IMG/VR virus record: IMGVR_UViG_3300042888_001941
Span: 1 to 64,000 of that record
Length of the DNA stretch: 64,000 bases
From: a virus
Strand: one strand, 5' to 3'
Positions 1 to 60,080 of the stretch are shown here, in pieces (within the stretch, counting starts at the first letter, position 1; every line of letters starts with the position of its first letter). The notes beneath the pieces were generated by a model. The model was not told where the DNA came from. It ran no database searches and saw only the letters and a program-made list of their open reading frames with translations. Made by a program: the position numbers and the translations under genes.

Positions 1-3000
1 TTCTGCGGCTGATGCTTCTAGTGAAGCGTGGCCACCAGCGAGTGTTAGCTGACCGACAGGAACATCAGTTCCGTCCTCAGCACGAACAACACCTGTGTGG
101 AAATATGCGTACTTGCTGCGGCTGCGCGGTGGCTTAGTTCCAAAGCTCATTCCGATGTGGTCAACGTGCCATGCTGCGATGTGGCCGAATACGTGGCCTT
201 CATCATCTACAGTAAGAGGCGTTGCCTTCTGGAGTTTTGGATTGTCAAACCATTCACGCGGCGGCGCGACTGGAATGGCGCCAGCAACTACTCCGCACGC
301 TACAAGCGCGGAAGCTTCTACTGGATCCATTTCGTCGACGTAAACTCCGTCGGGAATCACGATGTCCTCCTGTTTCTCGTCTTCAACGAGGTAGATTTGG
401 CACTCTTGAAATGCCGGTTTTGGCACGAGAGTAACAGCCATAACTCGTGCGTGAGTAATCACGAGCTTGTCTGCGCCAATCTTACCACTGTCTTCTTCTT
501 CTGATAGATCAGCTCTTTCTTCATTTGCTTCGAACTGATCCAAATCCGCGGATACTCCACGGATAAATCCATTGCGCACTAGGCGCTCTGCCTCTTGTCC
601 ATATTCACCCTGGTCAAAGACTCCGGTGGCATTTCCAATACCATTTTCAACTCGTTCCATATGGTCGATACGACCAACAACAACTGAACCGTTATGGCCT
701 TCAGCAGATTTGATCTGCCACATAAGAGGGAGTGGTAACTCACGAATTTCAATCGCGCCCTTCTTAAACTTGCGACCATCACCAGACTCTAGATCTTCTG
801 GGATAACAAGAGGAATGCTGAACTTACCGCCGTCCTCGTATTCAATGTGGCCGCTTGCCTTGAGAACGCGATTACGCGCATCTTTAGCTCGTGCTGAAAG
901 AGACGCAGCCTCGATTACTTGTTCGCTTGAAAGGATCTCGTCCATAGCGAATACTCCTTTCTTCATTCCAGGGTTGTCCTTATCACCAGGCCACATACCT
1001 GTCATTTCCTTGTGGCGTAGTGAGCAGTAACCCTTAGCTCTTGGTCCCATATACTTCTTTAGGTTGCGGTAGCAACGTGTCCAGTCTCCTGGAGTGTTCC
1101 AACGAATCTTTACAAGACCGCCCTTACCAACTGTCCAATAACGGCGTAGGTTCTCAGCGTTGCCGCGATTACGGTCAGGGCCGCCAGCAGCCGTGAGGAA
1201 CATGATACTTCCGCCTGCGCCCCATAGAACTGTAATAAAGTCCTTATCTGGAGTTGCGCTAGCGGCAACTGGAGCAATACCGTCTACCTGCTCAATTACT
1301 GACTTTAACGCACCTGAGTCAAGCGGCACAACAGGTGGAGGAGTCGGAGAATTCATATCAACAAGGAGAGCCTCGTTGCGTATCCACTTGTTATCTTTGC
1401 GTGTGTACGTCATAGGATCTGTGCTGGTTGAGCTTGCAGGCACCAATGAAACAAGTTCAAGAACTGCACCTGGGTCATCTTCTGAAACAACAGCAAAGAA
1501 TACTGGTTGAACGTCTGAGGTCTCAGGCGTCATCTCTTCTGACTTGCCAGCCTTAGCGGCAGAAGCTACCTTAGGAACTGCAGGCTGATAGTAAAGTTTG
1601 TTTGGATAGTAGTACTTACCGTCTGATCCTTTAACCTTCTTGTTAAGGAACGGTGCAAGCAGCGGGTGCTTGTAAGGATCCATAATCATCTTTACACCAG
1701 TAAGATCTTCAAGTTCTTTTAGGAAGTCTGGCTTTTCATATTGCTTAGTCTGCCCTGGTCCAGTGATAATTTCACTTCCAGGTCTAGTGACTGGCTTACC
1801 TGCAGCATACCCATCGCGCTGATCCTTAACAAATCCTGGCCAATCGTTTTGTGCCTTTGCAAGATCACTTGCATTCATGCGAGGAAGTGTTCCTGGCAAT
1901 TGCGCGTATGGACGGTCAATAGGTGTACGAGGCTCTGCAAGAATTCCTGAAGTATCCAAGGGAGTTTGATCTGGAGCTTGACCTTGGCCTGCAGAATACG
2001 TAGGCCTATTTGGGGCAAGCTCAACTGTAGTAATTGGAACTTCTATAGTGTTGCCACTTCCTTCTAGTGTAACGCTAACTGTTTGCTTGGCTTGGTTGAT
2101 TGCAACGATTCTACCTGAGCCTTTCGCTGCGTCTCCGCCTACCACTACTTTTGATCCTACCTTAGGCCTTCTTCCAAATTTTCCGCCTTTTTGACGAGGC
2201 TGATCTTCAACGGCATCACTTCGGTTTTCAGATGTGTAGATTCCATCACCTGGGATTCCACCTGGTGTACTGGCAGAAGGAGTTTCACCTGCCGCAGTTA
2301 AAGTTCTGTCAAGAAATTCTAAGTCTAGCTCATTTGCAGCCGCAAGAATCATTGAAGCTTCGTCGTAGTCAATGTCAAACAAAGACACTGGGCGATACGC
2401 ATCTTGCTGGAATGATGCAGATAAGAATAGAGCAGACTCAGGGTCAATTTCAATATGAGTCTTTTCTGTTACGTCATCCTCTTCATCAAGAGCGAGGTCG
2501 TAACTTGCAAGGTCAGGGCTGACTCCGTCCAGCATATGCCAGTGCCCAGAGTCCCATACGGAGACAAGTAAGTCTTCATCAATTTTGTATAGGCGGTCAA
2601 TGCCTGAGCCGTCCATACGCAAACGGGCAAGAAATTCAACTGCTCCATTTTCAGGGGAGAATGCCGCAAGATCTGCATCGTAATTATTCTCTGCTACAAA
2701 GTCAAAAGGATCTGCAACGTAACCGAGGTCTGCGTAACCGTCAGCCTTTAGCGCTTTCTTGTTTTCGCGCTCGACAATTGCTCGCGCCCAACGCCACGCG
2801 GCGTCGCCACCCCAGAGAGCCCACGCGATACGCCCGCGAGACGGGAAACCGTCTTCGCCTGGCTCATAGCCTTTCGCCTTCTTATCAATTTCATGACGAG
2901 GAAAATATTTCGCAATATGGCGAACTTTCTCGATACCAATTTGTCCGCCCTTCGCGAGTGTGCGTGCACTGTTAACTCCTACGGGAGTACCACCACGCTT

Positions 3001-3294
3001 GTGCTCTTTGCGCCATTCAAGGCCTCTTTTTGCCTCGGCCTGCGCTGCTTTAGGAATTGTGTATAGTCTGCTGCCTGCTGCAACGATGCTTACGTCTAAA
3101 GATGTCAATGTTGCCTGGGCTAGCTCTAATGCTGAAGAAATATCTTTACGGGTAGCTGGCTTCCATTTTGCAGAAGCAGTGAGTGAGGAGAAAGTTCCAG
3201 TCTCAACTACAGTGTTTTCATCTAGGTCAATGATGACTGCATTTACATCATCACTGAATAAAGCGCGTGAGCCACTCTGTCCTACATGTTTCAT
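1..3294 (-). CDS. Capsid maturation (prohead) protease, long form, partial
   Basis: About 1098 residues are visible; the C-terminus lies beyond the left edge. The start ATG overlaps the previous stop (ATGA), suggesting translational coupling. A herpes-virus-type prohead protease core spans roughly residues 800-970: a His-containing segment GHNGSVVVGRIDHMER near 865, a Ser in GVSADLD near 913, and HARVMAVTLVPKPAF near 948. Further on, GHVFGHIAAWHVDHIGM (about 1030-1048) is a segment I know from actinophage maturation proteases. The N-terminal 700 residues are unusual: a Trp/Arg-rich block (GGDAAWRWARAIVERENK), a KOW-like stretch and a proline-rich linker. It probably processes the scaffold and head proteins. 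Function is fairly secure; the role of the N-terminal extension is unknown. Confidence 0.8.
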   Translation of the reverse strand, partial: MKHVGQSGSRALFSDDVNAVIIDLDENTVVETGTFSSLTASAKWKPATRKDISSALELAQATLTSLDVSIVAAGSRLYTIPKAAQAEAKRGLEWRKEHKRGGTPVGVNSARTLAKGGQIGIEKVRHIAKYFPRHEIDKKAKGYEPGEDGFPSRGRIAWALWGGDAAWRWARAIVERENKKALKADGYADLGYVADPFDFVAENNYDADLAAFSPENGAVEFLARLRMDGSGIDRLYKIDEDLLVSVWDSGHWHMLDGVSPDLASYDLALDEEDDVTEKTHIEIDPESALFLSASFQQDAYRPVSLFDIDYDEASMILAAANELDLEFLDRTLTAAGETPSASTPGGIPGDGIYTSENRSDAVEDQPRQKGGKFGRRPKVGSKVVVGGDAAKGSGRIVAINQAKQTVSVTLEGSGNTIEVPITTVELAPNRPTYSAGQGQAPDQTPLDTSGILAEPRTPIDRPYAQLPGTLPRMNASDLAKAQNDWPGFVKDQRDGYAAGKPVTRPGSEIITGPGQTKQYEKPDFLKELEDLTGVKMIMDPYKHPLLAPFLNKKVKGSDGKYYYPNKLYYQPAVPKVASAAKAGKSEEMTPETSDVQPVFFAVVSEDDPGAVLELVSLVPASSTSTDPMTYTRKDNKWIRNEALLVDMNSPTPPPVVPLDSGALKSVIEQVDGIAPVAASATPDKDFITVLWGAGGSIMFLTAAGGPDRNRGNAENLRRYWTVGKGGLVKIRWNTPGDWTRCYRNLKKYMGPRAKGYCSLRHKEMTGMWPGDKDNPGMKKGVFAMDEILSSEQVIEAASLSARAKDARNRVLKASGHIEYEDGGKFSIPLVIPEDLESGDGRKFKKGAIEIRELPLPLMWQIKSAEGHNGSVVVGRIDHMERVENGIGNATGVFDQGEYGQEAERLVRNGFIRGVSADLDQFEANEERADLSEEEDSGKIGADKLVITHARVMAVTLVPKPAFQECQIYLVEDEKQEDIVIPDGVYVDEMDPVEASALVACGVVAGAIPVAPPREWFDNPKLQKATPLTVDDEGHVFGHIAAWHVDHIGMSFGTKPPRSRSKYAYFHTGVVRAEDGTDVPVGQLTLAGGHASLEASAAE

Positions 3295-4283
3295 CCGGTG
3301 TTTTTTCCTGTCTCATCGGTAACTGGTCCGCCTGCAATCCACGCGTCACACGTACGCGAAGCTGCACACTTAAAGTCTAACGCCTCGCAATATCCTAAAT
3401 CGCCCGCGGCAACCACGTCATAGGAATCTTCAACGTTTTCGTCGCCTTGCTGCAGACCTTGGGCAATACAGCCTTGCATCTTAGAGGTCTGAATAAACGC
3501 CGCGCAGTTACCGCATAGGCTCTTCTTTGCATCGCCTATGGTGACGCTCCAGCGGTCTGCCTTGACCTGCCAGAACTCGTCATTAGGCTCCGCAGGGTTA
3601 AGTGGGCCGTACCCTACGTTGTCAATTGCGTTCTGACGGTTCTTGATATTCAATGCAATGTCCTGCGTTGCAGGTGGGCATGATGTATCAGCCGCGGCGG
3701 TCATTGCTGACGGCTCGCCAAAAACAATCTCGCGAACAAAACCTTCTGGCATTTCTTTACCGTCCTGCATGTCGAGGATCCATGCGTTAGGTCCTTCTGG
3801 GTCAATACCGCCTAGAGCTGCCATCACTAACTCAAACATACCGTCAGAAGTAACCTTCATGTTAGGATTTTCTTCTGTGCCTTCAAGTTGGTCATAAAGA
3901 TCTGGGTAGTCATTAAGAACCTGGTCAATATCTGCTTGCACGTTGATAAGTCTTTGGTCGACAGGCTCTTCCTTAAGAGCTTCAAGAGACTTCATTATAG
4001 AAAGCTGCTCTTCTTTAACGGCAATCTTTTCTGATGATTCTTCCCTGGCTGGCCCAAAACGGTAAGACATTGACAAGCCAGTTGTTGCAACAGATAGGTA
4101 GTCGTCTACCTTATAGTTCGAGCTGAAGTTCTTGGCTCTTTCCATAAGCATTTTTTCACGCTTCTTTGGATCAAACACTTTACGGTCATTATCAAAGACG
4201 TACTTAAAGCCTTTGTCTGAGGCTACAATTGAAAAGACGTGCTCTTCTGTGCCAAGGTCATATGCGCGGATTACTTTTATCAT
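3291..4283 (-). CDS. Phage head-region protein with C-terminal Cys cluster (HiPIP-like)
   Basis: 330 residues. The N-terminal 200 residues show no domain I recognise. The C-terminal 110 residues carry a spaced cysteine array (CGNC, GCIAQG, GYCEALDFKC, RTCDAW). This resembles small 'high-potential iron-sulfur-like' proteins annotated near head protease genes in tailed phages, so it may bind a metal or Fe-S cluster. It lies between the giant protein and the protease and overlaps the protease start by 4 nt, so it is translated with the head operon. The biochemical role is not known. Confidence 0.65.
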   Translation of the reverse strand: MIKVIRAYDLGTEEHVFSIVASDKGFKYVFDNDRKVFDPKKREKMLMERAKNFSSNYKVDDYLSVATTGLSMSYRFGPAREESSEKIAVKEEQLSIMKSLEALKEEPVDQRLINVQADIDQVLNDYPDLYDQLEGTEENPNMKVTSDGMFELVMAALGGIDPEGPNAWILDMQDGKEMPEGFVREIVFGEPSAMTAAADTSCPPATQDIALNIKNRQNAIDNVGYGPLNPAEPNDEFWQVKADRWSVTIGDAKKSLCGNCAAFIQTSKMQGCIAQGLQQGDENVEDSYDVVAAGDLGYCEALDFKCAASRTCDAWIAGGPVTDETGKNTG

Positions 4284-4289
4284 TTCGTC

Positions 4290-7200
4290 TTACCTCTTCC
4301 AGTAGTTTCTCTTCATTGATTTTGCAAGCGCGTCATTCTCGGCTGTGCCTGGTGTCGCGATTCGTGCAAGACGTTCTTTCATCGCATCCTTGAATGCATT
4401 GTAGCTTCCCCACTTCTCAATGATGGCGGCAAGCTCTTCACCTTTAGGCTGGAACAAAGGATTATCAAGATTGGTGATAAGCTTGTCTACCTGGTTTAAG
4501 AACATCTCTTTAGTGCGTGCTTCTCCAGCAGTATCTATAAGTCTAGGGATAGCTGATTGGTACACGTCTCCAGCTGATGGCCAGTTTCTTCCCAAGAAGG
4601 AAGCTATGCTGTCATCGTCTGTGTCAATGTTGATAAGGCCATGATCAATTGGGAATATTCTCAACTTGTTAGTGGCGTTATCAAACGCGACCATCCAGTT
4701 TGCATCATGACGGTCTTCAGAGTCTCCGAGCATATCTATAATTGCCATGCTAAGAATATCCTCAGGATTACTTAACATGTCAACAAAAGTTCCATTGTTT
4801 CCAAAGAATCTGTTTCCAGCCTCTGGATTTACTACTCCGTCGTAGAACATCTTTTCTGCGTTAACAGGAGATGCGCTAATAGGTAGTGTAGCCCCAGCTT
4901 CGGACATGATAAACACGTCTAGGTTCTCACGAGATGCGCGAACATCTGGAATACCGTGAAGACCAAGAGCGTTAAGTACAACGTTAGCCTCAACCTCGCT
5001 GGTTAGTCCTCGTACGCCATTCCACTCTCTAGAAAGATTCTCTTCCTTGACAAAGAATACTTGTCCGCTTTGCTTATGAATAACTTTGAACGTTGTGTTC
5101 TGTCCACTTTCATACTTACCTAGTGGAGTTGCTGTAAACCCAGCAGCTTGCAGCGCTTCTGAGTTGTCCAAGAAGTCGTCTACCGAGAAGTCAGTGAGTG
5201 CCTCGCCAATTCCTCCAAACGGATCTGCAAAGTCATAGTCTGCACGGTACTCTGCGTCAAGCCCTGTGCGTAGACGGAACAAATCGTCCATAGGCATCTT
5301 GCTATCTTTATCAAGAAGCTGCTTTGAGACGTATGAGTTAAGAGCTGCCTTAGCCGCAGGAGACAAGAAGCCGAGAGGGCGATTGTTTCTTAGCGCGTCG
5401 CGAATTGCTTCCATATGAGGACCAAGCTCTGGGTTATCAGCCTGGAATGCATTGTCCATAACTTGAGCAAGAGCGTTAGCACTCATATTTGGCTTATTTT
5501 GTCCAGCCTTGATGCGGCGCTCAGCGTTCTTAATTTGATTGTAGTTAACTGCTTGCTTCTGCTCGCGCGCATCTGGAGTTAGATGCTTAACACCGTCCCA
5601 CGGCTTTTGTATGAGAACTTCTTTTCCTAGCCAATTTTCTGCACCTGGGTACCAACCAACAAGCGCTACCTCAAGAGGAGTAGGAAGACTATTAAGATCT
5701 CCTCCACTAGCTGCAAGCTTTTGATTTAGCTTTTCAACAAGAGCTTTTTCTTCTGGTGTTCTCGCCCTACGCTTAAGAAGGCCTATCACGTCTGCAGCGA
5801 TGTACTGGTCTTGCCAGTTAAATCCGTTTAGTGCCCAGACAAACGCGCCTTGCCAGCTTCCTCCTCCTGCAGCAAATACCTTTACCTTTTCAATTCCATT
5901 AGCAATGTACCAGTTTTCCATGTAACGGTTGTAGGCGCTAGCAAATCCTTTTTTCTTGTTTCCTCCAGCAATTCTAAGAATTTCGTTCTTTACTGTAGCT
6001 TCATACGTTTTATTGCCCTGCGCATCAGTCGTAACTTCAATGCTCATGCTGCGAGTGCCGTCTCCGACTTCTCGACCATTTTTTTCAACAAGAAACCCTA
6101 TAGACAAAGAGTATCTTTCTTTTCCAGATTGACGTTCTTGAGCATCACTTCTTACATAAGATCTTACGCTTGTAGCATTTATTGAAAAACCTTCAGACCC
6201 AAAAGAAACGCCTTGGCGGGATCCAAAAATATCCTTAACAATTTCATTTAACGCTTTGTCTGCGTTAATTTTAGCTTGCACATCTCTAGAGTCTGAGGCG
6301 TCAGCGACTGCTTTTAGAGCTGCAGCCAACGACTCAAAAGAAGCTCTTGTTGTGGCAGCCTTAGCAATTTCTGCATCTCTGTCGCCCCACGCAGAGAAAT
6401 CAGACTGCACTACGCCTTCTTGAACAAGAGGCTTGATGTTATCTGGAATTTCACTTGTGTCGTTAATTCCCCACGCTGCTCCTGAGCGGGCAACGTTAGG
6501 AGCTGGTCTAATTGGAGCGTCTAGACGAGATTCAACGTCTGTAGAAGGAGTGGCAGGTGATGGCGCAAGAGAACCGGAAGGCGCGGTAGCAAGAGACCCA
6601 TCAGGGTTAGACACTGCCTTAATCTGATTTGCAGAGCGTACAGCAACCTTGCCATCATCAAACTTAATACGTACATACTCTGGATCATTCTGAATACTTA
6701 CGACTGTTCCACGCTTGCCATCACGATTAGCGGTGACAATTGAACCTGCGCCAACTACAGAACCGTCTGATGCGAGCGTAGTGTTATTGACTGAGTATCC
6801 AGCTTCACGAGCACCTGGGTAGACGAAAGTAGACGCAGGAGCTTCTGTTGCTGGCGCAGCAGGAGCTGGCGCAGCGGGAGCTGGAGTTGCATTAGGGGAA
6901 CGAAGTGCAACCTCTTGACGAATTGCTTGCGCTACTCCTTCAGGCAGTTCTGTCCAGCCGTACGCTCTTCCTCCAGGGCTTAAAAACCAATCAGCGTCGG
7001 ATTCAAGACTTACTGCCCCACCATTAGGGTGAATCGAAATTACTTTTGCATCTTCAAGGTCAGTTTCCGCAGTTTGAACGAGCAGTATGCCATTGTTAGG
7101 GTTGTACGCAATAAACTTAACATCTGGAGACATTCCATTGCTGAATATTCCAACTAGTGCGTTAGCAGCGTCATCCAGCATGAGAACAGTCTGTGGTGAC

Positions 7201-10200
7201 GTTGAAGGGTCTTCTTCATTGATGTCTGCAAGCGCGTCTGAGAACGGAGCAAATTCAACTGAGCTGCCTGGTGCTGCTTCTGTTGCAGGAGCTGGAGGTT
7301 CTTCTGGGTTAAGAAGTCTAATGTCTGGATCTGGCGCATCAACAAGAGATGAATCAAGTCCTGCAGCATCTACTGCGTCGCCATCAAGAACTTCTCCATT
7401 AACGTCTGTGTAAAGACCTTTTTGTGCGTCCCAACGAATGTCCTCACGGGAAAGACGCTTAATAGCTTCTTCTTCTGACATGTCATTTGACTCATCACGA
7501 AGATTAAATAGAATTTCGTTGGTGTTAATATTTAGAAGTTGTAACGCATCACGAAGCGCTTCTGCCGGCACTTCAGCTACTCCAGCATCTCCTCCAAAAT
7601 CTAGAAGAGCTACACCAGAACCATCGGTAATTGCATCAAGCATCTGGTCAATAAGATCTGCTGGATTATAGTCTGCAGCTAGTATTCTAGGATTGTCAGT
7701 ATAACCATTTTCATCAATGTCTGGGACTGACGGGATGTATGGATCTGTGTCCATGTCAAAGTAGTCTGGATTGTCATAGTCAACAGGAACGTTCTCTATG
7801 AGAGATCCAGTAATCTTCTTCTCTGACTCACTTCTTTTATACGCGGGTGACTCGTCGTCAGGGTCTGCTTCCTTAATCTGACGAATCTCGTCAGTCATGT
7901 CCTCAATAAGTTGAACATCCTCAGGAGATGATACGCCTCCTTGAGCGTCAAGAAGTTTACGCACGTTGTTGCGGTTACCGTTAACTGCATCGTACGCATT
8001 GGCGATGACACGGTTAGGGTCTCCACCGGCCTCGTAGACTGCGTTGTAAAGAGCCTCGGCCAGCACAAACTCTTCTCCAGCGTTGAACTCGAGAGCTCCA
8101 CTGCCTGTGCCACTAACTTCTCCTGCGCGACGCGCTGGTGCATTAGTTACATCTTCAAGATCTGCAAGATCTGGGAGATCATCGTCGTCTCCTACGTTTG
8201 CATCAAGGATGTCCTGCATTGCATCATCGTTAGGACGGCCAATCAACGCTTGTGTAAACGCAGCAACAAGATCACTGAGGCTGAACTTTGTTGCAAGGCG
8301 CCGTGGGTCATCTGTAAAGTCTGTTGACTCTTCATCGATGCGACCTTCTGGCTCATATTCTGTGGTGCGAAGTTGGTATGCCCCAGCAGGCTTATCGAAA
8401 TCTCCGAATAGAGCAGGAGATCCTGGTGTGCTAGGGCTTGGTGCTTTTGGGAGTGTGCCTCCACCTGGTGACGGCGGTTCGTCTGGGCCGGAACCAGTAA
8501 TATCTTGAAGAGCTTCTTCCCAGTCTTCTTGCGTGCTGAGTCTTGACATAAGAATACCATCTTCGTTACTGTCAGGCCCATCGCCAATTAGTTTCCTTGC
8601 AAGTTCTTCAGACACTGTCTTTTCTGGGAATGTAAAACGAACAACACGCTCGTCACCAAAAGCTAAGCCCGTCTGTTGCGGACTTAGATCTACGTAGATT
8701 CCTAAATCGTTTGCCTGGTCAACAATGTGCTGCATTATTGTTTTTTCGTCGTCCCAAAGATCATCCATCTCCGCTAAAATAATGTCATATTCTTTTCCAT
8801 CTGGTTTTTCAATAGAGTTAGTTGAACCCCAGATTCCACGTGACGTGTCTACTGGCCCTGAGCCAGAAGGTGGTTCGCCTGGGCCGCCTACCTTGTCTAC
8901 TCCGTCTCCAAGATTTTCATCAAGATCTAAACCGTAGGCTTCATTAAATGCATCTTTAGCATCTGTAGGTATGTCAAATGTTACTCGCTTAGTAAGCCCA
9001 TCTTCGCTAGTACTTACTACCTTGACACCGAGCTTATCAAGACCTTTACCTTCTAGCCACTTAGCAAGCGCTTCTTGCTCAGTCATCTCTGTTGGGTCTT
9101 CATCTTCAAGCCCTGGAATGTCCTCGAACATGTCGCTTGAACCTAATGTTTCAAAGTCAACTGTGTAGCGTTCGCCTGGGCCTGAGCTACCTTTTGCTTC
9201 TTCAATCATTCCATCATCGATAAGATCTTGGAACGTTACACCTTCTTCAAAGTCACCATACGCTTTGACAAAATCAGCTTTAGCATCTTCAGGGATTTCC
9301 AAGACAGACTCTGGTCCGCCATATCCATCTGTAAGTAACTTAACTTTGACACGTCCGTCAAGACTATTAGCTTTTAACCATGCATCAAGAATTTCTGAGT
9401 TTTCATAATCGCCGTCTGGGTCAAGACCGATTTGTTCAAGTGTCTCTTCATCACGGAGGGCGTCGAAATCAACTTTGTAATTCTTGCTTTCGACAGAAGT
9501 AGCATTGCCAATACCACGAAGAGCTTCGTTTACCTTTTCTGCGTATTTGTCATACTGCTCATCAGACTCCCAGTCGATACCGCCGTCGTCTTCAATGCGA
9601 CCAATAATCTTGTCGCCAGGCTCCCATCCATCTGGGTACATAACAACGTTTCCGTAATTGTCAGGTGCAAACGTTACACCCTCCATGTTGTACTCTCCAG
9701 TGCTGTCTTCACGCATTTTCTTATTAAGAGCGTCCAGCGTAGACTTGTCAATTTCAACAAAGTCTTCAGTAACGACACGAGCGTCGTATCTGTCGTCTCT
9801 AGGCTCTTGTGGGAATTCGCGTGGAGGCAAGTTCTTCTCCATGTTGCGACGAAGATCTTGTTCTGCTTTCTTAACTTGTTCAGGTGTAGTTGGCTCTGTT
9901 TGAGGAGCTGCTCCAGGTACTCTGTTTCCGTCTTCGTCAACGTAGTACATTACAGCATCTTTGTCTCTAACAATTGGGTTGTCCTTTGTAAATGTATCAT
10001 TAAGATAATCTACTAATCCTGGAACACCTTGGTTGTCAATTTCATCCCATGACTCAAAACGACGTGAAGGGCCACGGCCGTCGGTGCCTTCTGCTGGAAT
10101 CCATCCGCCTGAGTGTCCAGCAATGTACGTTCCATCGTCGTTGAGACGCGCGATGATTGGATATGTTCCACCATCACGTAATGGCATTTCACGAGTGTAT

Positions 10201-11600
10201 GACTTATCATCGTTAGCATCACGAGTCCAAGCATTAGGGACTACGTTTCCGTTAAGGTCCTTATCGCTTAGTGGGCGAGGTGCAGGACGCTGTGCGTCAA
10301 ACTTCTTGTTCTCTTCAGCACGCTGCTGCTGAGTCCTAGCAATATCTTTAAAGTCAACAACATCTTCTTCAGTAGCTCCAGGAATTCTTGCAAGAGGAAG
10401 CTCGCCGCTTTCTTCTTCAAGGCGAGCAATCTCCTTGTCAAACTCTGGCTGATCCTTTTCAATAAGCGCATTAGCCTCGGCCCAGTTGCGAGCATTTCCA
10501 ACTGTGCCTGCTGGGCGTCCGTCCGCATTGAGACGTGTAACAGATTGTGGTTGACCGTTTGGTCCAGGGATAACTGCGTAGTTATCGTCTGATACATAGT
10601 AAGGACCTTGCTTCTTCCAACCAATTGGTAGTTCTTTGCGAGCGCCAGATAGGTCTGAAACTGAAGGGATGTCCTGGTCAAACTGATCTTTAAATGATGG
10701 CTCCTCTGGAGCTTCCATTCCTGGAATACGTGCTTGGTACACTGCGGCATTGCTACTGCTAACTGGGTACAGTCCAGGTTGAAGTCCAGGTACTCCTGAA
10801 ACTTCAATAAGACCAAATTCAGATGTTAATGATGTACCTGTTGCTGTGCGCTCTACAATACTGTTTGAGCCAGCGCCGACGTAGTTACCACGGGCAACTT
10901 GAATTGAGCCATCAGGCAAACGGAAGCGGAAGTTAATGCCGCGACCCATTTCAACCCACTGGCCAAAACGGTCACGCCACTGTAAAGCAACACGTGCTCT
11001 GCGAGCTGCAGAAGAGTTACCACTGCTAAACGCTGCTGTGATAGCAGTTACGTCATCAATCTTAAAGTACGCAGGGACCGCAGACGCCTGTAATGAGCGA
11101 AGGCGTAGAAACGCGTGCTCACGCTCGATAGACTCAGGCGGAAGCGAGTGGGCCATAGCAACAAGAGGGCGAGCCTCATCTGAGATTGCAGGGTCAGCCG
11201 CAATCCACTCTGCGTACTTCTTGCGAAGGTCCTCACTGGTTAGTGACGCATTAAGAGGAGACAGCGGGTGTCCCTTTGGAAGAAGGTCCGCATGCTTAGT
11301 GCTAACACTTGCAAGAAGAGTCTTTTGATTCAAACTAATAAACTTTGTGACCTCGCGTAGAACTCCGTGATTGCGAGACTCTTCTGGGAGTGATGCAAGC
11401 TCCTTCATCGCGCGAGCCATAACAATCAACGCAGCGCGTGGTGTTACATGACGCTCAGGTAGTGCTGTCTCATTGGCTGCGTGAACAAGCGAAAGGACCT
11501 GGTCGTTAAGAGCCTTTTCGCTCTTAGCCTTTGCCTTTGCTGACTGCGCAACCTTACGATTAGAGTTGCGGTCAATCATTCTGTTGATTGGTGAGTCCAT
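4290..11600 (-). CDS. 2436-residue multidomain head-associated protein with kinase-like C-terminus
   Basis: Start ATG follows an AGGAGAAT ribosome site and sits 2 nt after the upstream stop. The N-terminus is basic and helical. The middle is very acidic and holds internal repeats: YKVDFDALRDEETLEQIGL and YTVDFETLGSSDMFEDIPGL head two similar 75-residue units, with a third degenerate copy. A second repeat family begins TDDPRRLATKFSLSDLV / TDNPRILAADYNPADLI. A KOW-like segment lies near residue 1640. Around 1880-1930, KKGFASAYNRYMENWYIANG looks acetyltransferase-like (weak). The C-terminal 260 residues show protein/lipid-kinase features: VK near 2182, a Glu in SEVEAN, DRHDAN near 2296 and IDHG near 2317. 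Placed between portal and protease, it may be packaged and ejected; that is inference. Confidence 0.7.
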   Translation of the reverse strand: MDSPINRMIDRNSNRKVAQSAKAKAKSEKALNDQVLSLVHAANETALPERHVTPRAALIVMARAMKELASLPEESRNHGVLREVTKFISLNQKTLLASVSTKHADLLPKGHPLSPLNASLTSEDLRKKYAEWIAADPAISDEARPLVAMAHSLPPESIEREHAFLRLRSLQASAVPAYFKIDDVTAITAAFSSGNSSAARRARVALQWRDRFGQWVEMGRGINFRFRLPDGSIQVARGNYVGAGSNSIVERTATGTSLTSEFGLIEVSGVPGLQPGLYPVSSSNAAVYQARIPGMEAPEEPSFKDQFDQDIPSVSDLSGARKELPIGWKKQGPYYVSDDNYAVIPGPNGQPQSVTRLNADGRPAGTVGNARNWAEANALIEKDQPEFDKEIARLEEESGELPLARIPGATEEDVVDFKDIARTQQQRAEENKKFDAQRPAPRPLSDKDLNGNVVPNAWTRDANDDKSYTREMPLRDGGTYPIIARLNDDGTYIAGHSGGWIPAEGTDGRGPSRRFESWDEIDNQGVPGLVDYLNDTFTKDNPIVRDKDAVMYYVDEDGNRVPGAAPQTEPTTPEQVKKAEQDLRRNMEKNLPPREFPQEPRDDRYDARVVTEDFVEIDKSTLDALNKKMREDSTGEYNMEGVTFAPDNYGNVVMYPDGWEPGDKIIGRIEDDGGIDWESDEQYDKYAEKVNEALRGIGNATSVESKNYKVDFDALRDEETLEQIGLDPDGDYENSEILDAWLKANSLDGRVKVKLLTDGYGGPESVLEIPEDAKADFVKAYGDFEEGVTFQDLIDDGMIEEAKGSSGPGERYTVDFETLGSSDMFEDIPGLEDEDPTEMTEQEALAKWLEGKGLDKLGVKVVSTSEDGLTKRVTFDIPTDAKDAFNEAYGLDLDENLGDGVDKVGGPGEPPSGSGPVDTSRGIWGSTNSIEKPDGKEYDIILAEMDDLWDDEKTIMQHIVDQANDLGIYVDLSPQQTGLAFGDERVVRFTFPEKTVSEELARKLIGDGPDSNEDGILMSRLSTQEDWEEALQDITGSGPDEPPSPGGGTLPKAPSPSTPGSPALFGDFDKPAGAYQLRTTEYEPEGRIDEESTDFTDDPRRLATKFSLSDLVAAFTQALIGRPNDDAMQDILDANVGDDDDLPDLADLEDVTNAPARRAGEVSGTGSGALEFNAGEEFVLAEALYNAVYEAGGDPNRVIANAYDAVNGNRNNVRKLLDAQGGVSSPEDVQLIEDMTDEIRQIKEADPDDESPAYKRSESEKKITGSLIENVPVDYDNPDYFDMDTDPYIPSVPDIDENGYTDNPRILAADYNPADLIDQMLDAITDGSGVALLDFGGDAGVAEVPAEALRDALQLLNINTNEILFNLRDESNDMSEEEAIKRLSREDIRWDAQKGLYTDVNGEVLDGDAVDAAGLDSSLVDAPDPDIRLLNPEEPPAPATEAAPGSSVEFAPFSDALADINEEDPSTSPQTVLMLDDAANALVGIFSNGMSPDVKFIAYNPNNGILLVQTAETDLEDAKVISIHPNGGAVSLESDADWFLSPGGRAYGWTELPEGVAQAIRQEVALRSPNATPAPAAPAPAAPATEAPASTFVYPGAREAGYSVNNTTLASDGSVVGAGSIVTANRDGKRGTVVSIQNDPEYVRIKFDDGKVAVRSANQIKAVSNPDGSLATAPSGSLAPSPATPSTDVESRLDAPIRPAPNVARSGAAWGINDTSEIPDNIKPLVQEGVVQSDFSAWGDRDAEIAKAATTRASFESLAAALKAVADASDSRDVQAKINADKALNEIVKDIFGSRQGVSFGSEGFSINATSVRSYVRSDAQERQSGKERYSLSIGFLVEKNGREVGDGTRSMSIEVTTDAQGNKTYEATVKNEILRIAGGNKKKGFASAYNRYMENWYIANGIEKVKVFAAGGGSWQGAFVWALNGFNWQDQYIAADVIGLLKRRARTPEEKALVEKLNQKLAASGGDLNSLPTPLEVALVGWYPGAENWLGKEVLIQKPWDGVKHLTPDAREQKQAVNYNQIKNAERRIKAGQNKPNMSANALAQVMDNAFQADNPELGPHMEAIRDALRNNRPLGFLSPAAKAALNSYVSKQLLDKDSKMPMDDLFRLRTGLDAEYRADYDFADPFGGIGEALTDFSVDDFLDNSEALQAAGFTATPLGKYESGQNTTFKVIHKQSGQVFFVKEENLSREWNGVRGLTSEVEANVVLNALGLHGIPDVRASRENLDVFIMSEAGATLPISASPVNAEKMFYDGVVNPEAGNRFFGNNGTFVDMLSNPEDILSMAIIDMLGDSEDRHDANWMVAFDNATNKLRIFPIDHGLINIDTDDDSIASFLGRNWPSAGDVYQSAIPRLIDTAGEARTKEMFLNQVDKLITNLDNPLFQPKGEELAAIIEKWGSYNAFKDAMKERLARIATPGTAENDALAKSMKRNYWKR

Positions 11601-11602
11601 GG

Positions 11603-13429
11603 TTATTCTCCTGTTGCCTTTCTTTGCTTCTTTGGCAGGAGGTCTGCATCTTTGCTTTCATAGAGTTTTGTTGCTAGTTCGTACGCTCGTGAGAAAGGCA
11701 CATCGCCGTCACGGACGCCACGTAACCAGGCGCCTCGTAGGGCTGGGATCACTTCGTATCCCATACCTGAATATTCAGCCATAGAAAAAATTGCGTGCTC
11801 TGGTGAGCCATACTCGTCCGCAGACTTAAGCGCAACCTGGAGAAGTTCATGCTGTAGAACAGCTGCCTCTCCACGAGATGACTTAGGGTGAGCCTTAGGT
11901 AGCAAATCATTGTCCTGCTTGTAATTTGGATTTGCTGGGCGGCCGCTCTTAAGAAGCTTAAGGAATGCGTTAACACGCGCCATTGCCCACTGGTCACGAG
12001 TCTTACCTGGTCTGTGACTTGATGAGAACGCTCCAGCGCCGCGGCGGTATACTGCCTTCAGCATTGGAAGTGTTGCCTTACGTCCAGCCTTTGAGTTCTT
12101 GTTGTGCTCTTCAACCTTATTGCGAAGAGCTGTTTCTACCTTGTCGGAGAAAACAATTTTCTTTGAGCCTGCGGCAGATCCTGGCTTGTTTCTCTTTGAG
12201 CCGTAGATACGGTCCTTCTTGGGAGCGCGGCGTGATGCTGCAAGCTCTGCGTCAGAGTCGTCTGCTGCATTAACAGGGACACAGTTAGGAACCATGTTTC
12301 CCTTCTTGCCCTTCTTCATACCGACCTGCTTGTAACCGTCCCAGCAAGGACTCTTACCAGCTGCAATTAAAGCGTCGTATTCGTGAGCGCTAAGCTCATC
12401 AAAAGGCTCGTCAAAATTAACTGCACTTGCAGTAATCTGGTCGTCCTCAACCTTAACAACGCCGTCAGGGATCACCGCGAAGCGGCACTTGCCGTCGTCT
12501 TCAATAGGCTGTGCAATAATCTTGCAAACGCCAGGACCTTCATACAAAACGCAGTTGATGCACTTAACACCAATATCCTTGACATCGTTCTCAGCCGGAG
12601 GAGTGTACCCAGCCCAGATACCTGTGCGGTCCTCGTTAAACTTTCCGTACTTCTCTGCAATCTCTAAAAGAGCCTTTGCTAAATCTTGCTCCTCGGCAAC
12701 AATAATTCCTGCTGCCATAAGTGCTTCTTGCTGCTCTGCTTGAAAGTCTTCGTACACATCCATACCAACGTGGCAGTGATGGCATGGGCAATCCTCGTCA
12801 CAGAGACAAACGCCACCATCGCTTGACGGACACATACACTCGCCATATCCACAGAGCGGGCAACCATTTGCATCGTCCATGAGCTGCTCAACAACAGGCA
12901 GGACTTCATCAGTCATGTCTGCGTCTAAAGGTTGAACAGCGTCAGATTTTCCCAATGCGTCAGCGCGCTGTGGAGATAAGAAAGATGTTAACTTCCAGCG
13001 TAGCTTCTTATGCTCGTCATCACGGCCCGCGAGGTAATCTGCAATACCTTGCTCGTCAAGATCCGAAGCGATCTTAAACGCGACGTTGATTGACTCAATA
13101 AGAATGTTGTTTGCCTCTAGCAAATCCTGACACATAAGCATCGCATCAGAGCCAACCTCCATGTCGGACATGTTGGACAAGTTTGCAAAGTCTGAAAGCT
13201 TGTAAGGAGCGAGCGCGCCTATCTTGCGGATGTTCTCTGCAACAGGGTCAAACTGCGCGAAGGCGTCTTCGTAGATGTCACTAAAGAAGTCATGAAACTG
13301 TGAGAAGTCACGGCCCATAACATTCCAGTGGTGTCCGTGTGCCTTGGTGTAGAAAACAACGTTGTTACCCAGAAGACGAGCAAGAGCTTCTACAAGCTCT
13401 GGCTTTTCTACACGCATGTTGTGATTCAT
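11603..13429 (-). CDS. Dps/ferritin-like domain fused to phage structural (DUF5824-like) protein
   Basis: 608 residues. Residues about 10-150 match the Dps four-helix pattern: HHWNVMGRDFSQFHDFF, with the His residues 12 apart, then FDPVAE supplying the Asp and Glu at the usual distances. One ferroxidase acidic position (four residues after the second His) is Ser instead of Asp/Glu. Next comes a Cys-rich zinc-like stretch (CPLCGYGECMC, CLCDEDCPCHHCH), then GVKCINCVLYEGPGVC. The C-terminus contains RRGAGAFSSSHRPGKTRDQW, typical of the actinophage DUF5824-like family. It lies 2 nt after the portal gene. It could be a head component that binds iron or DNA; the fusion is unusual and the role is not established. 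Confidence 0.75.
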   Translation of the reverse strand: MNHNMRVEKPELVEALARLLGNNVVFYTKAHGHHWNVMGRDFSQFHDFFSDIYEDAFAQFDPVAENIRKIGALAPYKLSDFANLSNMSDMEVGSDAMLMCQDLLEANNILIESINVAFKIASDLDEQGIADYLAGRDDEHKKLRWKLTSFLSPQRADALGKSDAVQPLDADMTDEVLPVVEQLMDDANGCPLCGYGECMCPSSDGGVCLCDEDCPCHHCHVGMDVYEDFQAEQQEALMAAGIIVAEEQDLAKALLEIAEKYGKFNEDRTGIWAGYTPPAENDVKDIGVKCINCVLYEGPGVCKIIAQPIEDDGKCRFAVIPDGVVKVEDDQITASAVNFDEPFDELSAHEYDALIAAGKSPCWDGYKQVGMKKGKKGNMVPNCVPVNAADDSDAELAASRRAPKKDRIYGSKRNKPGSAAGSKKIVFSDKVETALRNKVEEHNKNSKAGRKATLPMLKAVYRRGAGAFSSSHRPGKTRDQWAMARVNAFLKLLKSGRPANPNYKQDNDLLPKAHPKSSRGEAAVLQHELLQVALKSADEYGSPEHAIFSMAEYSGMGYEVIPALRGAWLRGVRDGDVPFSRAYELATKLYESKDADLLPKKQRKATGE

Positions 13430-13431
13430 CC

Positions 13432-15180
13432 TTATGCTCCTTCTACTGCCTTGTCAATAAGTCCAGAAATTTCATCTTCTGCGGGTGCAGGTGTAGGCTC
13501 TGCAGCTGGTGTAGGCGCTGGGGCTGGTGCACCTTGCTGCTCAAGAATCTGCTGTACCTCGGGAGGAACTGGCGCTACAGAGTCTGCCTGCTGCGCATCA
13601 CGAACAGACTGCATTACGTCTGGAGCAATCGCCGCAATCATCGCCTGAGTAAGCTCTGGAGAGATAGCGCCCTTTTCAATCATCATGCGGATTGCAATTT
13701 CCTTAGCGTCTGGAGCGTCCTGATTTGAGAATCCGTGAGCGCGACGCCATGTCTCATAAGAAATGGCCATCTTCTCAAAGCCTGAGTCAGCATCAGCTGC
13801 GCGGTCATTGCGAGTAGCAACCTGTGAAGGGTCGTACCAAACAACAATCTTCTTTACATCTTCTTCGCTAAAGCCAGAAGAGATAAGCGCTGGGCGTAGG
13901 TAAACAACTGTGAGTGCGTCAGCAATCAAAAGCATCAACGGTTCAATGTGAGCCTTGTATAAAGACTCGTCAATCTGCAGAGCGTTAGAGTACTTAACGT
14001 TTGCTAGCCCTGTAACAATATCCTTAGGAACGTCAAGTCCCTGGAGAATACGCTCGAGGACTCGATCTGCACGTTGTGCAAGCGCTGGGTCAAATGAGCG
14101 TTCAAACTTGAACTGCTTAATTTTGTCGCCAAGCTCTGCAGGTCCGCGAATAATAAGTGGAACAACCGCGCTGGCTGAGTCCTCATCACGAATCGGAGTC
14201 GTCATCGCGTCAATGAGCTGATCCTCAAACTCGTCCTCTGCCTCTTCAACAGTAAGACCTGGATTGAGATCATTCTCATCATCGTATGGATAGTCTGGGT
14301 CTGGAGATGCAGCAACGCTTAAACCGTCTGGTAAGTAGAGAGCTCCTGCGTTAAGTCGTGAGCGAGTTGTCGCGCGGAACGTGCGGTTGAGCAAAAGCAG
14401 CTCTGCGCAAAGATCTAGGAGACCGCGTAAGCTTGAGTCTGCCTCTTCAGAGTAACGTGGGTGTGAACGCCAGATGCGTCCAACAAATGAGCTCTTTGGG
14501 AGTTGAACAACACTCTGTCCAGTGCGTCCGCCGGTTGATAAATCACGGCGTGGAACAATTACATAGTTGTTTCTTGCGTCAAGTTGTAGCTCGTCTGTAG
14601 ATCTAATATCCCATGACTCTGGAACGCCAGTGCCTGGGCGAGCTGGAGACTGAACAAGATAGCACTCGCCAGAAACTACAAGGTTAAGAGCTGCATCCTT
14701 TAGAAGACCAGCTTGTCCACCGTTCGTGGAGTCTAAGCGCGCAAGTGCACGCTCGGCTGCTGCCGCTAAGCGTTCGTCAACAACTTTGCTGCTGTTAACA
14801 CTTACTGGAGACTCAGCAGGGTTGTCAACTGCTGCCGCGTATAAACGAATACGTGAAACAACAGATCCAACCAAGTTAAATGCATACTTGATTTCTCCGA
14901 TAGCGTCGTAGTACTCCCACGCTTCGCCTTGCCAGTCAGCGGACCCTCCGGCACGGCGCTGCTTGAAGTATTCAACCTCGCCCTTGTCATTGAGTTTCAT
15001 CTGAACTGCAGCCGCGGTCATTGCTCGCGGAGTTGAGTATGCTACCGCCTGTGCGGAGTTAATCATTGGATCAATATTAAATGACGTAGGAGCCTGTGGT
15101 GGGGTGACGCGCTGCGCTGCTCTTCGCTGCGCACGGTTACCGCTAGGACGTGAATTGTTATCACGCTTAAATACAGCCAC
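13432..15180 (-). CDS. Portal protein
   Basis: 582 residues, the size expected for an actinophage portal. It forms the dodecameric ring at the head vertex through which DNA is packaged. Supporting features are the central stem/wing pattern (SFVGRIWRSHPRYSEEADS, LLLNRTFRATTRSRLNAG), the segment ILQGLDVPKDIVTGLANVKY, and a proline/alanine-rich C-terminal tail (APAPAPTPAAEPTPAPAEDE). The position directly upstream of the maturation genes agrees. I identify it by overall resemblance to actinophage portals rather than by a single catalytic motif. Confidence 0.85.
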   Translation of the reverse strand: MAVFKRDNNSRPSGNRAQRRAAQRVTPPQAPTSFNIDPMINSAQAVAYSTPRAMTAAAVQMKLNDKGEVEYFKQRRAGGSADWQGEAWEYYDAIGEIKYAFNLVGSVVSRIRLYAAAVDNPAESPVSVNSSKVVDERLAAAAERALARLDSTNGGQAGLLKDAALNLVVSGECYLVQSPARPGTGVPESWDIRSTDELQLDARNNYVIVPRRDLSTGGRTGQSVVQLPKSSFVGRIWRSHPRYSEEADSSLRGLLDLCAELLLLNRTFRATTRSRLNAGALYLPDGLSVAASPDPDYPYDDENDLNPGLTVEEAEDEFEDQLIDAMTTPIRDEDSASAVVPLIIRGPAELGDKIKQFKFERSFDPALAQRADRVLERILQGLDVPKDIVTGLANVKYSNALQIDESLYKAHIEPLMLLIADALTVVYLRPALISSGFSEEDVKKIVVWYDPSQVATRNDRAADADSGFEKMAISYETWRRAHGFSNQDAPDAKEIAIRMMIEKGAISPELTQAMIAAIAPDVMQSVRDAQQADSVAPVPPEVQQILEQQGAPAPAPTPAAEPTPAPAEDEISGLIDKAVEGA

Positions 15181-59339: not shown

Positions 59340-60007
59340 AAATGGAGATAGATGAATTCTTTCAAAAGGATCAAGTCACCTATTCACAGCTAAGGCAAGA
59401 TCTTTTTGCTCTGTACCATAAGCAAGACTCACCAGGATACTTTGTAGAGTTTGGTTCTCTTGATGGGATAGACACGAGCAATACGTACATCCTTGAGAAG
59501 TATCATGGCTGGACAGGAATTCTTGCAGAGCCACTTCCTCGCTTCTACGATGAGCTCCATCGCAATCGCGCATGCATCATTGATACCCGTTGCGTGTTCT
59601 CTCACTCCGGTGACGTTGTTCAGTTCGGTGAGGTCGAGGACTTCCCTGCGGTGTCTACTTTGATTTCTCATAAGGACCAAAGCAGTATGTGGAAAGAGAA
59701 GCGTCAGACGAATAAGATCCACGATGTCGTGACAGTTTCCCTTGATGACCTATTAGACGAGCACAATGCACCTGCGGTGATAGATTACCTATCTATCGAC
59801 ACTGAAGGATCTGAATACACGATTCTTAGCGCTCACAGTTTCAAGCGTCCGTTTAACACAATAAGTGTTGAATACGCAAACCAAGATGAGCGTCATAAGC
59901 TTTACAATTTACTTACGTACCACAAGTATATTCGGGCTCACGCAAAACTTTCCCAGTGGGAAGACTGGTACGTGTACGCACCTTGGTACGTAGAGAAGTA
60001 CCACTAG
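59336..60007 (+). CDS. FkbM-type methyltransferase
   Basis: 223 residues from GTG (GTGA overlap), or 221 from the ATG two codons later. SAM site GYFVEFGSLDGIDTSNTYIL, then LAEPLPRFYDEL and IDYLSIDTEGSEYTIL. FkbM enzymes methylate sugars or small molecules, which suits the neighbouring glycan genes. Confidence 0.8.
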   Translation: MKMEIDEFFQKDQVTYSQLRQDLFALYHKQDSPGYFVEFGSLDGIDTSNTYILEKYHGWTGILAEPLPRFYDELHRNRACIIDTRCVFSHSGDVVQFGEVEDFPAVSTLISHKDQSSMWKEKRQTNKIHDVVTVSLDDLLDEHNAPAVIDYLSIDTEGSEYTILSAHSFKRPFNTISVEYANQDERHKLYNLLTYHKYIRAHAKLSQWEDWYVYAPWYVEKYH

Positions 60008-60008
60008 A

Positions 60009-60080
60009 GCGAACGACGGGGTTCGAACCCGCGACCTGAACCTTGGCAAGGTTCCGCGCTACCAGCTGCGCTACGTTCGC
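60009..60080 (-). tRNA. tRNA-Gly (anticodon GCC)
   Basis: 72 nt, minus strand. Acceptor GCGAACG / CGTTCGC; D-arm GCGC-AGCTGGTA-GCGC; anticodon arm GAACC-TTGCCAA-GGTTC; T-arm GCGGG-TTCGAAC-CCCGT. CCA is not encoded. It lies antisense between two plus-strand genes. TATAGT upstream on the minus strand overlaps the leaderless promoter of 60106. Confidence 0.95.

What the first reader, a model, noticed from the sequence alone, without database searches (positions are those of the whole stretch)
4290..11600. Giant head-block protein with a kinase-like C-terminal domain
The C-terminus carries a Lys (FVKEE), a helix Glu, DRHDAN and IDHG in the order and spacing of protein/phosphoinositide-like kinases. 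Upstream lie a possible acetyltransferase-like segment and two families of acidic repeats. Its position between portal and maturation protease suggests it is packaged and injected, possibly as an early effector, and the protease may process it.
Basis: partly seen in the sequence, partly recalled or inferred. Interest (0 to 1): 0.78.

Follow-up and report, generated by a model that had tools for sequence, protein, structure and literature searches.

The report
Phage head protein with C-terminal kinase
A freshwater phage, probably of actinobacteria, encodes in its head-gene block a 2436-residue protein that ends in an apparently intact kinase domain preceded by an acetyltransferase-like domain; it is probably carried in the particle and delivered into the bacterium, and its acidic middle section is swapped between phages in blocks.

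Summary
The ORF at 4290-11600 (-) is real (2436 aa), and the kinase reading holds. Residues 2131-2436 form a confident kinase-fold model (pLDDT 87, pTM 0.87; Foldseek: HipA, CtkA, CotH). All 25 homologues tested match PI3_PI4_kinase weakly, and K2185, E2202, D2296-R-H-xx-N2301 and D2319 are invariant in 31 of 31 distinct relatives. "IDHG" itself is not conserved; only its Asp is. The upstream segment (about 1800-2006) models as a divergent GNAT-like fold; this is weaker. Both acidic repeat families are real. Every relative with a complete kinase also has GNAT-like sequence.

Virion location is inferred, with independent support: the gene lies between portal and protease; Microbacterium phage Pumpernickel carries a related kinase as a clean C-terminal extension on the same trunk, while relatives lack it; Micromonospora phage pMLP1 fuses this kinase type to a minor capsid protein.

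New: the acidic middle is modular. Blocks, some bounded by Gly/Pro linkers with repeated DNA, are duplicated and exchanged between otherwise divergent phages.

Precedents: polyvalent proteins with kinases and GNATs (Iyer 2017); "Gratiaviridae" HipA-like kinases between portal and capsid genes (Benler 2021). Verdict: new variant of a known kind. Packaging, injection, substrate and processing are not shown.

The parts
4290..11600 (-). giant head-block protein, 2436 aa
   Evidence: homologues in 60 IMG/VR loci
10581..11048 (-). N-terminal trunk region aa 185-340 (…WRDRFGQWVEMG…), shared with Microbacterium phages and DSL-LC01
9231..9500 (-). acidic repeat family 1, copy 1 (aa about 701-790)
8901..9188 (-). 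acidic repeat family 1, copy 2 (aa about 805-900); aa 810-903 is 86% identical to L054 although the trunks are 51% identical
8841..8888 (-). linker GGPGEPPSGSGP (aa about 905-920)
8472..8831 (-). exchangeable acidic module (aa 924-1043), 82.5% identical to the duplicated module of L049
8451..8495 (-). linker GSGPDEPPSPGGG (aa about 1036-1050)
7851..8402 (-). acidic repeat family 2, copy 1 (aa about 1067-1250)
   Evidence: conserved in relatives
7401..7781 (-). acidic repeat family 2, copy 2 (aa about 1274-1400)
5271..6500 (-). GNAT-like region (aa 1701-2110; core about 1805-2006)
   Evidence: conserved alignment; model pLDDT 88; Foldseek GNATs
4293..5210 (-). C-terminal kinase domain (aa 2131-2436)
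4692..4721 (-). catalytic loop EDRHDANWMV (D2296, N2301)
   Evidence: invariant D, R, H and N in 31/31
11603..13429 (-). neighbour: Dps/ferritin domain fused to DUF5824
13432..15180 (-). neighbour: portal protein
   Evidence: PHROG 776, E 4.6e-108
1..3294 (-). neighbour: N-terminal part of the maturation-protease protein (continues at the far end of the record)
   Evidence: homologue in DSL-LC01 matches Peptidase_S78

Best explanation
It is a virion-carried effector protein of the polyvalent-protein kind. A constant N-terminal trunk probably ties it to the head (inferred). A variable acidic middle is built from modules that recombine between phages (shown by sequence; role unknown). The C-terminal payload is constant: a GNAT-like domain (likely) followed by a kinase of the HipA/CtkA/PI4K-like type with an intact ATP-binding and phosphotransfer centre (shown at sequence and fold level). 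The most likely mechanism is that the protein is made late, packaged with the DNA, enters the next host at ejection, and modifies host proteins by phosphorylation and perhaps acetylation before early phage genes take over, in the manner of T4 Alt. Packaging is strongly inferred; injection, activity and target are inferred only.
For: Kinase fold and residues. Purifying selection. GNAT-like region always beside it; fold. Conserved place between portal and protease/capsid genes. Related kinase as a C-terminal add-on to the Pumpernickel trunk. Same kinase type fused to Phage_min_cap2 in pMLP1. Profile homology of these kinases to the window's. Precedent for injected polyvalent proteins with kinases and GNATs: PMC5512222.
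Against: No proteomics. No substrate. The window's own domain scores below the Pfam cut-off (18.4 against 27.1 bits). GNAT matches have E of 2e-3 or worse. A late-gene position is also compatible with action in the producing cell. A folded 260-kDa protein would have to unfold to pass the tail.
Confidence: 0.55

Rival explanations
1. The kinase acts in the producing cell, late in infection, for example by excluding superinfecting phages or modifying the envelope, as proposed for the HipA-like kinase of Gratiaviridae. Its fusion to a head protein is incidental or serves to control it.
For: Encoded among late structural genes; that interpretation was given for a kinase in the same gene position (PMC8008677).
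Against: Independent fusions to structural proteins (pMLP1 minor capsid protein, Pumpernickel trunk) are hard to explain if the particle is not the site or vehicle.
Confidence: 0.2
2. The domain modifies phage structural proteins during head assembly (a morphogenetic kinase), not the host.
For: Sits in the head block beside portal and protease; always retained in this family.
Against: Cece, Big4, Zooman and A3Wally keep the same trunk and gene order without a kinase, so assembly does not need it there.
Confidence: 0.12
3. The kinase-fold domain uses a non-protein substrate (lipid, nucleotide or small molecule) or transfers something other than phosphate.
For: Closest matches span lipid kinases, protein kinases and CotH/Fam20-like families.
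Against: Canonical K/E/D/N/D set kept; the nearest solved relatives HipA and CtkA are Ser/Thr protein kinases (established knowledge).
Confidence: 0.1

Closest known systems
Phage polyvalent proteins (Iyer et al. 2017, PMC5512222)
   Same: Giant multidomain protein encoded among virion genes, combining a kinase and a GNAT-like domain; thought to be packaged and injected.
   Different: Their kinase clade lacks the C-terminal kinase subdomain and is found mainly in Verrucomicrobia-Chlamydia and Bacteroidetes elements; here the C-terminal helical part is present, the phages are related to actinophages, and the middle is a modular acidic array.
HipA-like kinase of Gratiaviridae phages (Benler et al. 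2021, PMC8008677)
   Same: HipA-type kinase encoded between portal and major capsid genes; DPS also encoded in those genomes.
   Different: Described as a protein with a kinase domain, not as the end of a giant trunk protein; hosts are Bacteroidetes; interpreted as late-acting.
Micromonospora phage pMLP1 minor capsid-kinase fusion
   Same: Homologous kinase at the C-terminus of a head protein next to the portal-like gene.
   Different: Short Phage_min_cap2 carrier (648 aa in all), no acidic array, no GNAT-like region seen.
Microbacterium phage Pumpernickel gp82
   Same: Homologous N-terminal trunk, same gene position, related C-terminal kinase.
   Different: Kinase only distantly similar (about 26%); close relatives lack it; no match to the GNAT-like profile.
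MuF polymorphic toxins (PMC5576092)
   Same: Constant phage head-derived N-terminus with a C-terminal effector.
   Different: Here the C-terminus is constant within the family and the middle is the variable part; no immunity gene was looked for or recognised.

Membership tests
Protein-kinase-like superfamily (fold) | Two-lobed kinase fold with Lys, helix Glu, catalytic-loop Asp and Asn, metal-binding Asp | tested here: met
   AF2 model, Foldseek kinases, K/E/D/N/D invariant 31/31
Pfam PI3_PI4_kinase (PF00454) | Score above the curated cut-off (27.1 bits) | tested here: not met
   Window domain 18.4 bits; all 25 relatives match at E <= 0.1, best 5.2e-6. Works like it; not filed as a member.
HipA toxin family | HipA Pfam match and HipB antitoxin partner | tested here: not met
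   No HipA Pfam hit for the window; one relative hits HipA_2 at 0.0096. Fold similarity only. No antitoxin search was made.
Polyvalent proteins | Several domains of unlike activity in one polypeptide encoded beside virion genes | tested here: met
   Kinase plus GNAT-like region, between portal and protease; the GNAT part is provisional
Polyvalent-protein kinase clade of Iyer et al. | Loss of the whole C-terminal kinase subdomain | tested here: not met
   Model has a long helical C-terminal part, residues 214-305 of the domain
GNAT acetyltransferases | GNAT fold with acetyl-CoA pyrophosphate loop [Q/R]xxGx[G/A] | tested here: inconclusive
   GNATs are the best structural matches, E 2e-3 and weaker; KKKGFA in a GNAT-like place with G and F invariant; no Pfam hit
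Virion-packaged injected effectors (e.g. T4 Alt) | Protein present in the virion and transferred to the host | not testable with these tools
   Only gene position and fusions

The most novel reading that the evidence does not exclude
The acidic middle of this virion effector is a recombining cassette array: repeated linker DNA (33-42 bp, encoding GPDEPPTPPSG) lets phages gain, lose and swap modules of roughly 90-140 residues in frame between a constant head-associated trunk and a constant GNAT-kinase payload, so that a particle-borne effector is diversified by homologous recombination.
Probability: 0.35. Interest if true: 0.65.

Novelty: new variant of a known kind. Interest (0 to 1): 0.52.

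Why it matters
Few phage kinases have been characterised. Here an apparently intact one is tied to a head protein, with independent head-protein fusions in cultured phages (pMLP1, Pumpernickel), so particle delivery of a kinase becomes directly testable. It also bears on the open question of whether kinases encoded between portal and capsid genes, such as those of Gratiaviridae, act late or are packaged for the next infection.

Tried and rejected
Megablast of the first 25 kb against phages: no match. tblastn of the kinase alone against phages: weak hits only; the Brevibacterium hits cover just the C-terminal 58 residues (E 0.3, 28%) and were treated as chance. Superoxide dismutase matches in the PDB profile search (E 0.006-0.03) lie mostly in a helical stretch and were treated as chance, since the fold search does not list them. 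DSL-LC01's giant does not match the kinase profile. The genome-contig scan found only distant kinases, in Chthoniobacter flavus and an Armatimonadetes MAG. One of 15 linker-pattern hits (L120) has its match in an unrelated protein. IDHG as a conserved motif: rejected, only the Asp is conserved. Linkers as the universal module boundary: not claimed, since many relatives have none. No second copy of the kinase in the record. Several references failed because of wrong frames.

Full report
Observation. The ORF at 4290-11600 (-) encodes 2436 aa. The window is the start of a 136,434-base virus record. The neighbouring protease gene runs off the left end and its remainder is at the record's far end, so the record is probably circular. 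Head-block order on the - strand is portal (PHROG 776, 4.6e-108), Dps/ferritin-DUF5824 fusion, giant, 330-aa gene, S78-type protease protein, then further genes that look like capsid and tail genes (the last group was read by eye, not searched).

Kinase. A scan with aa 185-340 gave 60 IMG/VR loci; every giant with a complete 3' end in that set has both the C-terminal domain and the preceding ~410-aa region. The kinase alignment A2 (25 sequences, 28-74% identity to the window) has invariant K55, E72, D166-R-H-xx-N171 and D189, which correspond to K2185, E2202, D2296, N2301 and D2319. A wider set gives 31 of 31 for each. Pfam: all 25 members match PI3_PI4_kinase at E <= 0.1 (best 5.2e-6), although the window's own domain is below the cut-off. 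A PDB profile search puts CtkA first (0.002) and PI4K type 2 at about 0.03. The AF2 model has pLDDT 87.4 and pTM 0.87, and Foldseek gives HipA, CtkA, CotH and many protein kinases, with phage "PI3/4-kinase" proteins first in the viral library. TM-scores are below 0.5, so the claim is a divergent kinase-type fold, not a close relative of any one family. dN is 0.17 and dS 1.11 between window and L005.

Acetyltransferase-like region. Aa 1701-2110 gives a confident model (pLDDT 88) whose best structural matches are GNATs (KKT23, Naa50, GmvT, NatD, Gcn5), probability near 1 but E 2e-3 and weaker. No Pfam family is hit. A divergent GNAT-like domain is the best reading, not proven.

Middle region. 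Aa 501-1500 is strongly acidic and holds two diverged repeat families. Linkers of the type GPDEPPTPPSG recur between modules in some relatives. L049 and L052 are 99.9% identical in DNA but differ by one 414-bp module that is present twice, identically, in L049; linker DNA of 33-42 bp is repeated around it. Window aa 924-1043 is 82.5% identical (81% DNA) to that module although the N-terminal regions are 50% and the kinases 31% identical; aa 810-903 is 86% identical to L054 although the N-termini are 51% and the kinases 34% identical. Many other pairs share DNA blocks of 75-91% identity at shifted positions. So modules are exchanged. That linkers are the recombination points is an inference from few cases, and short-read assembly can collapse repeats.

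Is it in the particle? The gene's position is conserved in DSL-LC01 and Microbacterium phages. Pumpernickel gp82 ends in a related kinase, while Cece, Big4, Zooman and A3Wally share the trunk and stop before it. In Micromonospora phage pMLP1 the same kinase type is fused to a minor capsid protein (Phage_min_cap2 1.7e-75, PI3_PI4_kinase 7.8e-7) directly after a portal-like gene; the portal call there is by eye. Profile comparison links these kinases to the window's (hhalign 98.1%, E 1e-13). This makes packaging likely; it does not show injection or activity.

Comparison. Polyvalent proteins with kinases and GNATs were described in 2017 (PMC5512222), but that kinase clade lacks the C-terminal subdomain, which is present here. 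HipA-like kinases between portal and capsid genes, in a phage family that also carries DPS, were described in 2021 and interpreted as late-acting (PMC8008677). The present family is therefore a new variant: a trunk-modules-GNAT-kinase architecture in phages related to DSL-LC01, whose predicted host is Actinomycetia (PMC10611076). The host of the window's own phage was not determined.

Verdict (my estimates). Kinase-type fold: about 0.93. Active phosphotransferase: about 0.8. In the virion: about 0.7. Injected effector: about 0.5. GNAT-like activity: about 0.45.

Noticed in passing
11603-13429 (-): Dps/ferritin domain fused to DUF5824 in the head block; in DSL-LC01 the DUF5824 part is a separate gene and the Dps domain is absent from it, and a middle segment (aa 230-326) is 58% identical to the C-terminus of a DSL-LC01 protease-annotated gene, so head-block genes exchange domains.
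   Followed up: partly
3291-4283 (-): Cys-rich C-terminal half is 65% identical to a DSL-LC01 protein annotated as high potential iron-sulfur protein; no Pfam match.
   Followed up: partly
giant aa about 207-213; L001:9291-10688; far end of the record 134943-136433: A short motif of the type RDxxGxF/W recurs in several head-block proteins (giant, DSL-LC01 DUF3626 protein, protease C-terminus); it could be a capsid-targeting or processing signal. Seen by eye; only the giant-DUF3626 protein match was scored (E 1e-7).
   Followed up: no
L001:11923-21792: The DSL-LC01 giant (3289 aa, same gene position) lacks this kinase profile but by eye has an ADP-ribosyltransferase-like and another kinase-like stretch in its middle; no Pfam match.
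   Followed up: no
L102:9038-10549 and 10907-13096: A viral contig encodes a separate kinase of this type two genes after a protease-like gene, followed by a further kinase-like protein.
   Followed up: partly
L103:6144-9236: Chthoniobacter flavus encodes a 1031-aa protein with the same kinase catalytic loop, possibly a mobile-element or polyvalent relative.
   Followed up: no
60007-60080 (-): tRNA-Gly (gcc) is the only tRNA found in the window.
   Followed up: no
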